IMG/VR virus record: IMGVR_UViG_3300023223_000023
Coordinates: 1 to 27,622 of that record
Strand: one strand, 5' to 3'
Length of the DNA: 27,622 nt
From: a virus
Part shown: piece by piece, positions 25,898-27,553 of the stretch
How the letters are laid out: each line of letters begins with the position of its first letter
Position numbering within the stretch: the first letter of the stretch is position 1
Notes under the pieces: model-generated
Told to the model about the DNA's origin: nothing
Database searches by the model: none
Seen by the model: the letters and a program-made list of their open reading frames with translations, nothing else
Position numbers and translations under genes: made by a program

Positions 25898-26065
25898 TTA
25901 CTTTTTCCGTTTAGTAGGTTTTCTAACCTTTGAAGCAGCTATTGCAAAAGCTTGAGCTTTAGAGAGGCCTTCTTCTTTCCGAATTTTAGCTGCCTTTCTA
26001 CCAGCTTTTGCAGCTTGCATCTTAGTCAAAGGTTTTCTTACAGGTTTCTTTTTAGAGGTAGCCAT
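25898..26065 (-). CDS. Small very basic protein, first gene of the late operon
   Basis: 55 residues, read by hand: it begins ATSKKKPVRKPLTKMQAAKA, continues GRKAAKIRKEEGLSKAQAFA, and ends SKVRKPTKRKK. About one residue in three is Lys or Arg. The 'K..EGL.KAQAFAIA.SK.RK' part recalls small phage proteins with an 'SRKQAIAIALS.AR' motif, but that link is weak. Taken with the acidic-poor composition it could bind DNA or RNA or fill the head. TAAGG precedes the ATG at 26065, and the transcript start from the late promoter would be about 95 bases upstream. Confidence 0.72.
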   Translation of the reverse strand: MATSKKKPVRKPLTKMQAAKAGRKAAKIRKEEGLSKAQAFAIAASKVRKPTKRKK

Positions 26066-26167
26066 AGAGAGCCTTATATAGAGAGAATGTGGAAGTGTGT
26101 GGGAGTGTGTTTGTAAAGAGATAGCTAGTACAAGAGAATTGCACAGCTTTATGTCATTATACTATAG

Positions 26168-26197
26168 AGTATATCATAGACTTATATAGACTGTCAA
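26168..26197 (-). promoter_or_regulatory. Sigma-70-like promoter for the late operon
   Basis: On the minus strand TTGACA (26197-26192, perfect -35) is followed by an 18-base spacer and TATACT (26173-26168, 5 of 6 to the -10 consensus). Transcription would start near 26161, about 95 bases before the first late gene, and read leftward through the whole structural operon. The AT-rich spacer and upstream context (AAAGAAATGTC) fit. It is the best promoter match in the window. Host polymerase use is implied unless a phage factor is required. Confidence 0.72.
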
Positions 26198-26291
26198 GAC
26201 ATTTCTTTAAGGTGCAGCACTTTTATAGGGTTTTCATATCACTTTTGAGAGGATTAGAGAGGGATTATGATAGGAATAGATCTGTGCAAGT

Positions 26292-26332
26292 AACCTTGTA
26301 AATCTTACTGTAAATGTACAAATTACAAGGTT
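26292..26332. repeat. 10-bp perfect inverted repeat (operator-like dyad)
   Basis: AACCTTGTAA at 26292-26301 and TTACAAGGTT at 26323-26332 are exact reverse complements separated by 21 bases, centred at 26312. Arm centres are 31 bases apart, about three helical turns, as for two operator half-sites on one DNA face. The loop contains TGTACA at 26315-26320. It lies about 95 bases upstream of the late -35 box, so it could be a regulator site for the switch. As an RNA hairpin it has no T tract and is not a terminator. Confidence 0.55.
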
Positions 26333-26487
26333 GTTGGAGAATTGGGGCAGATTGGTGTAGGCTGGCGTAGGTATGTTAAAGTGGTTGCCAAGGTATTTTA
26401 CCAATTTTTGTGAAAGCACGTATACGCATACCCGTACACCCCCTATGTCCCTTTCCCCTTCTACAGACTCGTACACAGTCCTACTAG

Positions 26488-26560
26488 ACAGCTCCTTACA
26501 CAGTTACTTATACAGCTCCTCGTACAGCTCTACTCCTCCAGCTCACTGCAACAGCTCCTA
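26488..26560 (+). repeat. Cluster of ACAGCTC repeats
   Basis: Five copies of a CAGCTC core on the plus strand: ACAGCTCCT (26488-26496), ACAGCTCCT (26512-26520), ACAGCTC (26524-26530), CCAGCTC (26538-26544) and ACAGCTCCT (26551-26559). Start spacings are 24, 12, 14 and 13, mostly near one helical turn. A protein-binding array or iteron set is plausible. Confidence 0.55.
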
Positions 26561-26579
26561 TCTAAGCTACTGTAACAAC

Positions 26580-26636
26580 ACTTGTACAGCATATACCCAG
26601 TACTTGTACAGCCCATTGTACAGTTGACTTGTACAT
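26580..26636 (+). repeat. ACTTGTACA direct repeats (TGTACA palindromes)
   Basis: The 9-mer ACTTGTACA occurs three times, at 26580, 26602 and 26627, with a fourth, ATTGTACAG, at 26615. Each contains the palindrome TGTACA (26583, 26605, 26617, 26630; spacings 22, 12, 13). Further TGTACA copies lie at 26860, 26897 and 26918. The spacing pattern and copy number are typical of regulator or initiator sites. Confidence 0.6.
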
Positions 26637-26662
26637 GTCTTGCCCAACCCATTATAAAGACC

Positions 26663-26746
26663 TGTTACATACCTATTACCGCATTGTTACATGTAGATTA
26701 GGTAGTACTGTTGCATATATGTTACAGATTGTTACGGATGTGTTAT
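26663..26746 (+). repeat. TGTTAC repeat cluster
   Basis: TGTTAC occurs at 26663, 26685, 26720 and 26730, with a near copy TGTTAT at 26741. Intervals are 22, 35, 10 and 11 bases, near multiples of a helical turn apart from the 35. The first two copies are identical over eight bases (TGTTACAT). The AT-rich setting would also suit a DNA-unwinding element. Interpretation is tentative. Confidence 0.45.
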
Positions 26747-26963
26747 AGTTTATAGCACAAGTCTAGTAAAAGTTCTGGGCGAGGACTGGTTGAGGTGTTT
26801 CTTGTATACGTATGAGCAGTAAACCTATACAGAGCCTCACACAGCCACTACAGCAGCACTGTACACACTGACCTACCTAAGCTATGTGCAAGCTCTTGTA
26901 CAGGTCTCCCACAGTCTTGTACACTCCTGAACAAATTAATTTAATAAATATGCGTAATCGTCC

Positions 26964-26991
26964 TTGACATGGTGCTATGATAGTGTAGAGT
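26964..26991 (+). promoter_or_regulatory. Sigma-70-like promoter for the rightward genes
   Basis: Perfect TTGACA at 26964-26969, a 16-base spacer, and TAGAGT at 26986-26991 (4 of 6 to TATAAT). The first rightward gene begins at 27040, giving a leader of about 40 bases that includes AAGGA (27026-27030) as Shine-Dalgarno. It points away from the late promoter. The weak -10 could mean that an activator helps. Confidence 0.6.
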
Positions 26992-27039
26992 AAGGATATG
27001 AACAACAACTATAACAATACTATATAAGGAACTAATATA

Positions 27040-27282
27040 ATGGATATGGATAGGACAGAAGTAAACTATGGGCCAAGCTGCCATGGTGGTGGAGCGACAC
27101 AAAATATTAAAGAACATATAAATAATATTACCATAGTTATAAATATAGGGGATGAAACAGCAGTAACATACAATAGAGTAAGAGGAATACTAGCTTCTGC
27201 ATTGAGAGCACTAAAGATACCTGTTAATGGAGATAACGAAATAGAATTTAAAATGGTAGAAAAAGGTAAAGACAATGACTAA
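27040..27282 (+). CDS. Small hypothetical early protein
   Basis: 80 residues: an opening MDMDRTEVNYGPSCHGGG, then QNIKEHINNITIVINIGDET, a helix YNRVRGILASALRALKIPV and an acidic/basic end. Not recognised. AAGGA lies 9 bases before the ATG. The end overlaps the following gene by 8 bases, marking a rightward operon. As first gene behind the rightward promoter it is probably expressed early; small phage proteins here are often host-takeover or regulatory, but nothing in the sequence shows that. Confidence 0.68.
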   Translation: MDMDRTEVNYGPSCHGGGATQNIKEHINNITIVINIGDETAVTYNRVRGILASALRALKIPVNGDNEIEFKMVEKGKDND

Positions 27283-27553
27283 TACATACGTAAACAACAT
27301 GACTTCAACAGCCGGTAACAGTGTACCTAACCAGTTCATTATAAGCTCACCTAACAGCACTACATTCCAGAGCTACAAGACTACCATAGCTATAATGGGT
27401 ACAGATGGACTGACACTAGATACTAATGCAATGAACTATAGTAGAACTACATCTAAGTACTTGTATCAGTTCACTCACATGACTCGTAAAGAACTTGAGC
27501 AAGACATTGCAGATGGTACTATTAAAGTAGCTAACTTAAATGATAAAGGATAA
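27275..27553 (+). CDS. Small early protein, DUF8033-like
   Basis: 92 residues. The core FIISSPNSTTFQSYKTTIAI, LDTNAMNYSRTTSKYLYQFT and HMTRKELEQDIADGTIKVANLN fits a family I recall from small early phage proteins ('F.SY.T.IA........LD...W.YS.TT.KY...FL......I..G......LN', possibly DUF8033). Function of the family is unknown. It overlaps the previous gene by 8 bases, with a potential Shine-Dalgarno inside that gene (AAAAAGGTAAAG). The family name is from memory. Confidence 0.7.
   Translation: MTNTYVNNMTSTAGNSVPNQFIISSPNSTTFQSYKTTIAIMGTDGLTLDTNAMNYSRTTSKYLYQFTHMTRKELEQDIADGTIKVANLNDKG

What the first reader, a model, noticed from the sequence alone, without database searches (positions are those of the whole stretch)
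26066..27039. Divergent intergenic hub dense in short repeats
Almost 1 kb of gene-free DNA separates two opposed transcription units in an otherwise gene-packed phage. It contains two divergent sigma-70-like promoters, an inverted repeat and three repeat families, with GTACA 11 times in about 620 bases (about 0.6 expected by chance per strand). This combination suggests a phage-encoded switch protein, a replication origin, or both.
Basis: partly seen in the sequence, partly recalled or inferred. Interest (0 to 1): 0.72.

Follow-up and report, generated by a model that had tools for sequence, protein, structure and literature searches.

The report
Marine phage control hub, likely origin
The 1-kb gene-free gap is the control region from which this marine virus reads its early and late genes in opposite directions, and it holds an apparently undescribed ~80-letter DNA element, shared across a whole group of abundant ocean phages, that is most likely where copying of the viral DNA starts.

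Summary
In detail: 26066-27039 is gene-free, has divergent promoter-like sites, a hairpin and dense short repeats (GTACA 12 vs 3.1 expected; TTGTACA 6 vs 0.3). The window is a 27.6-kb IMG/VR fragment of an HMO-2011-type marine podovirus; relatives share the late<-hub->early layout. The repeats are not the conserved part: they differ between lineages (TTGTACA here; TTGTAAA, TGTGATCACA, CAGTTGC elsewhere) and are absent from a relative that keeps the promoters. Conserved instead are the leftward late promoter and an ~80-bp element, GTGGTTAACA...GTATATACGTA..CACCCCC..TGGCCC, at 26381-26461. A profile built without the window hits the window once (E 3e-9). Over 100 related sequences carry it, with late genes on the opposite strand (28/28) and early genes on the same strand (7/7). 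It shows no RNA pairing, and sits also in three phages whose gap is not divergent. Best explanation: core of a replication origin embedded in the early/late control region, with lineage-specific iteron-like arrays and an A+T run on its early side (origin role inferred, about 0.5). Rivals: purely regulatory region; packaging site. By-catch: a new covarying structured RNA starting the late transcript in over 100 related contigs, not found in this window.

The parts
26381..26461 (+). Conserved hub element (core): GTGGTTGCCAAGGTATTTTACCAATTTTTGTGAAAGCACGTATACGCATACCCGTACACCCCCTATGTCCC
   Evidence: Profile from 17 other phages hits the window only here: cmsearch E 2.9e-9, nhmmer E 3.4e-8; same orientation relative to late/early genes as in relatives
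26168..26197 (-). Leftward (late) sigma70-type promoter TTGACA-18-TATACT, extended -10
   Evidence: 11/12; 77 of 124 relatives' elements have a >=11/12 promoter in this place and direction, vs 4.2% of random intervals; flank similar to a promoter of HTVC115P
26245..26271 (+). Candidate early promoter TTGAGA-15-TATGAT, back to back with the late promoter (47-nt gap)
   Evidence: 10/12; 136 nt upstream of the element, relatives' early promoters 105-167 nt upstream; weak by sequence alone
26292..26332 (+). Inverted repeat / hairpin AACCTTGTAAATCTTAC..GTACAAATTACAAGGTT
   Evidence: Arms 82% complementary, 7-nt loop; RNA fold -14.8 kcal/mol, z -3.1
26488..26640 (+). TTGTACA-type array (26582, 26604, 26616, 26629 exact; degenerate 12-bp units before)
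   Evidence: 6 TTGTACA in hub vs 0.28 expected, 0/2000 shuffles
26663..26747 (+). TGTTAC-like units every 10-13 bp (mostly 11), roughly one helical turn
   Evidence: Positions 26663, 26674, 26685, 26696, 26709, 26720, 26730, 26741
26823..26935 (+). Second TTGTACA-type cluster (26896, 26917 exact)
26933..26951 (.). Only A+T-only run of >=18 bp in the whole window; candidate unwinding stretch
26964..26991 (+). Second rightward promoter-like site TTGACA-16-TAGAGT, just upstream of the first early gene
   Evidence: 10/12; a similarly placed site in HMO-2011, otherwise not tested in relatives
25898..26065 (-). First gene of the late (leftward) unit, small basic protein
   Evidence: codon score +0.28
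27040..27282 (+). First gene of the early (rightward) unit
   Evidence: codon score +0.24

Best explanation
The gap is the early/late control region of an HMO-2011-type phage, and its conserved ~80-bp element is most likely the core of the phage's replication origin. SHOWN (by sequence comparison): host-type promoter sites point apart (late promoter 26197; early candidate 26245 by position); the element is essentially single-copy and orientation-fixed; lineage-specific repeat arrays and, here, an A+T run lie on its early side. INFERRED: host RNA polymerase reads early genes through or next to the element; a phage DNA-binding protein whose specificity changes between lineages binds the arrays; together they open the A+T run so that the phage helicase, primase and polymerase (encoded by the early unit in relatives) start replication, and the same binding sets the balance between early and late transcription.
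For: Unique, highly significant profile hit at 26381-26461. One hub hit per relative apart from a few weak secondary hits; in the 80 pattern-scan loci examined, late genes opposite strand 28/28, early genes same strand 7/7, and the 24 pattern hits that fail the profile carry no HMO-type gene. blastn with the CRP-1 copy matches only HMO-2011-type phages among 50,697 records. No RNA pairing in the alignment, so a DNA signal. In CRP-3, CRP-212 and CRP-235 the element sits in a 750-860 bp gene-free gap flanked by - strand genes on both sides, so it is not tied to divergent transcription. Lineage-specific repeats, mostly on the early side of the element, in several phages. The only long A+T-only run of the window lies beside the second TTGTACA cluster. 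Constrained promoter-element spacing.
Against: GC skew does not settle it: the minimum follows the gene-strand switch, 0.4-4 kb from the element. No initiator protein identified. The window's rightward promoters are both imperfect. No experiment on any HMO-2011-type origin was found.
Confidence: 0.5

Rival explanations
1. Purely regulatory region: the element and the repeats are binding sites for a phage repressor/activator that switches between early and late promoters; replication starts elsewhere.
For: Promoters flank the element at constrained distances; L104 has four TTGTAAA packed between its divergent promoters; CRP phages have TGTGATCACA palindromes, in three of them a pair 74-75 bp apart, between element and early genes.
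Against: The element persists in CRP-3/212/235 where the gap is not divergent; it is far more conserved than the operator-like repeats, which turn over.
Confidence: 0.28
2. DNA packaging signal (pac or cos): terminase recognises or cuts at the element.
For: Essentially single copy, fixed orientation, always on the terminase side of the genome; contig ends are enriched within 500 bp on its early side (21 of 88 vs 3.7 expected).
Against: The ends lie at different sequences, several of them in tandem or palindromic repeats, and look like assembly breaks; in 12 contigs over 45 kb the element lies at many different positions; in HMO-2011 the terminase gene is 8 kb away.
Confidence: 0.15
3. Coincidence: an A+T-rich spacer with chance repeats and no function.
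For: Promoter-like site count equals the shuffled expectation.
Against: Repeat excess beyond 2000 shuffles and element hit at E 3e-9.
Confidence: 0.02

Closest known systems
Divergent hubs of HMO-2011-type phages (HMO-2011, CRP-1/2/9/13/207/345/603, HTVC033P/103P/104P/115P)
   Same: Late genes left on -, early genes right on +, long gene-free gap (882-1480 bp in HMO-2011 and these CRP phages), strong leftward sigma70 promoter in many, the same conserved element
   Different: Repeat families are different; the late-leader RNA present in HTVC033P and many uncultured relatives is not found in the window
Iteron/A+T-rich phage and plasmid origins (lambda ori type; from general knowledge)
   Same: Arrays of short direct repeats near helical spacing beside an A+T-only stretch, within a control region
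   Different: No initiator gene identified; the conserved core is a non-repeated 80-bp element rather than the iterons
Transcription-activated phage origins (T7 primary origin, T4 oriF/oriG; from general knowledge)
   Same: In a subset of relatives an early promoter points into the element 105-167 nt downstream
   Different: Promoters are host sigma70 type; no R-loop or primer evidence

Membership tests
HMO-2011-type phages | TerL, portal and coat protein related to HMO-2011-type phages | tested here: met
   TerL 36-43% to HTVC033P, CRP and HMO-2011 phages, the top hits among 50,697 records; portal 40-42%; coat protein 35-42% to HTVC033P/HTVC104P
HMO-2011-type phages | Late module on one strand diverging from early module at a hub beyond the terminase genes | tested here: met
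HMO-2011-type phages | PolA with DnaJ-like insertion, primase, helicase in the early module | not testable with these tools
   The contig ends at 27622, 0.6 kb into the early unit
Hub element family defined here (profile R2) | 94-position sequence profile, orientation towards early genes | tested here: met
   E 2.9e-9, + strand, late genes on -
Phage replication origin | Conserved cis core plus repeats and A+T-rich stretch | tested here: met
Phage replication origin | GC skew change at the site independent of gene strand | tested here: inconclusive
Phage replication origin | Replication initiates there | not testable with these tools
   needs infected cells
cos/DTR terminus | Fixed physical genome end at the site | tested here: not met
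   Element internal at varied positions in contigs over 45 kb; ends at varied sequences
pac site | Terminase cut and headful series start near the element | not testable with these tools
   needs virion end mapping
Known RNA families (Rfam 15) | Match in the hub | tested here: not met
   No match up to E 1

The most novel reading that the evidence does not exclude
HMO-2011-type phages share an undescribed origin core whose partner repeats change between lineages, implying an initiator or regulator whose DNA specificity evolves quickly around a fixed core, coupled to back-to-back early/late promoters.
Probability: 0.4. Interest if true: 0.65.

Novelty: new member of a known kind. Interest (0 to 1): 0.52.

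Why it matters
[quoted passage not shown] A single conserved element with a searchable profile gives a direct target for origin, packaging and promoter assays in cultured members (HMO-2011, CRP and HTVC phages), and marks the start of the early module in fragmentary metagenome contigs.

Tried and rejected
Hub as coding DNA: rejected by codon scores. Hub homologous at DNA level to known phages: blastn finds nothing, and the window's own element finds only chance hits. Close relatives through the first early gene, first late gene or single-sequence TerL: none. Repeat motif conserved across the group: rejected; TTGTAMA is enriched in the window, L104 and weakly HTVC103P only, and L103 lacks it. 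DnaA boxes: TTWTNCACA (<=1 mismatch) absent from the hub, TTRTNCACA 4 vs 1.4 expected, not convincing. ACCCCCTA as a motif of its own: superseded, it is part of the element in several hubs but also occurs elsewhere, e.g. in hairpins. G-quadruplex pattern on the - strand of the C-rich part: seen by eye, not evident in all relatives, not pursued. GC skew as origin test: inconclusive. Contig-end enrichment as evidence of a cut site: weakened, ends lie at varied places, several in repeats. Late-leader RNA in the window: not found.

Full report
OBSERVATION. The gap 26066-27039 lies between the first leftward gene (25898-26065) and the first rightward gene (27040-27282). ORFs inside it score as non-coding (-0.31 to -0.54 per codon, real small neighbours +0.19 to +0.43). 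GTACA occurs 12 times (dinucleotide-shuffle mean 3.1, 0/2000), TTGTACA 6 (0.28); this is the densest stretch of the window. TGTTAC-like units recur every 10-13 bp, mostly 11, in 26663-26747; a 12/24-bp period in 26460-26640 is only marginal. The hairpin 26292-26332 is real (z -3.1). The number of promoter-like sites is not above chance, so conservation had to decide.

IDENTITY. The window is an entire 27.6-kb IMG/VR linear fragment. TerL, portal and coat protein place it with the HMO-2011-type marine podoviruses, at 36-43% amino-acid identity to isolates for TerL and portal. No close relative was found: the best IMG/VR TerL match is about 50% over 426 residues, GTDB genomes give no closer portal, and phage records give no DNA match to the hub.

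ARCHITECTURE IN RELATIVES. HMO-2011 and CRP-1/2/9/13/207/345/603 have 882-1480 bp gene-free gaps at the same place. About 40 related loci carry back-to-back near-consensus sigma70 promoters, -35 boxes mostly within about 110 nt of each other. The repeats do not persist: L104 has nine TTGTAAA in two clusters (0/1000 shuffles), while L103, its relative at 69-77% DNA identity around the hub, keeps both promoters and has none. CRP-603/13/345/1 carry TGTGATCACA, CRP-207 CGAATCA, HMO-2011 CACTTAA and CAGTTGC.

THE CONSERVED ELEMENT. Comparing hubs showed a shared composite, GTGGTTAACA - variable - TGTGTAT - GTATATACGTA - CACCCCC - TGGCCC. A sequence-only profile was built from 17 non-window copies (alignment, model); no base pairs are predicted for it. 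It hits the window once, 26391-26460, E 2.9e-9, next best 0.06; nhmmer agrees (26383-26457, E 3.4e-8). Across 99 loci the good hits lie in the early-ward orientation, with a few weak secondary hits. Of 80 examined in detail, 56 fit, with late genes on the opposite strand in 28/28 and early genes on the same strand in 7/7; the 24 that do not fit carry no HMO-type gene. The training copies were found with a related motif search, so the pattern scan tests placement and specificity rather than discovery. Of 124 elements, 77 have a >=11/12 promoter pointing away within 420 bp (4.2% of random intervals), and 20 have a >=11/12 early promoter 105-167 nt upstream. The window has the late promoter at 184 nt and TTGAGA-15-TATGAT at 136 nt. 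So the early promoter corresponding to relatives is probably 26245, and 26964 may be an additional start.

FUNCTION. Since the element lacks RNA pairing, is far more conserved than the repeats, stays in CRP-3/212/235 where both flanks are - strand, and is accompanied on its early side by repeat arrays and here by the window's only long A+T run (26933-26951), a replication origin core is the best single explanation. GC skew cannot separate origin from gene-strand bias. A packaging site remains possible: contig ends are enriched on the early side (21 of 88 vs 3.7), but they end at diverse sequences, several in repeats, and near-complete contigs place the element anywhere. A purely regulatory role is the strongest rival.

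LITERATURE. Searches for origins, promoters or intergenic elements in this group found none described; only open-licence papers are held and supplements were not read.

BY-CATCH. In relatives the late transcript begins with a structured RNA: an 11-bp outer stem, an AAAG/AUCAC internal loop, a 3-bp stem and an ACAC-rich loop. Covariance model R1 finds it in 73 of 74 pattern-selected loci tested. A promoter of >=10/12 lies upstream in 111 of 115 loci, 18-20 nt away in 110 of these, and late genes are on the same strand in 104/104. Both-sided changes: 180 cells vs 80 shuffled, 0/500, although two of the five measures do not exceed the shuffles in this larger set; on the first ten sequences 11 of 14 pairs change on both sides. 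No Rfam family matches. The window lacks it. A role in antitermination of the long late operon is a guess.

Noticed in passing
L330:4956-5027(-), L007:31437-31508(-), L126:2544-2614, L121:212-283 and over 100 other IMG/VR contigs: Undescribed covarying structured RNA starting almost at +1 of the late transcript in many HMO-2011-type phages (model R1); no Rfam match. L104/L108-type relatives appear to have a diverged version. Absent from the window.
   Followed up: partly
L018, L023, L035, L075, L103, L104, L109, L126 and about 30 others: Back-to-back near-consensus sigma70 promoters (late and early) with short spacers are a group-wide feature.
   Followed up: partly
L007:31584 onward, L104, L109, L126 early leaders: Early transcripts in many relatives begin with a C-run/GGGGG element followed by TATATA within about 30 nt of the start; not analysed.
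   Followed up: no
L183, L185, L187, L188 (CRP-1, CRP-13, CRP-345, CRP-603 hubs): TGTGATCACA palindromes between element and early genes; in CRP-1, CRP-345 and CRP-13 a pair 74-75 bp apart.
   Followed up: partly
L272, L307, L313, L298: Repeated TAGTTTAACGTTAAACTA-like palindromes directly downstream of the element; several contigs end inside repeat arrays.
   Followed up: no
window 27275-27553: Second early gene belongs to a small unknown family (phrog_21575) also found in Pelagibacter autographiviruses, Acinetobacter and Edwardsiella phages.
   Followed up: no
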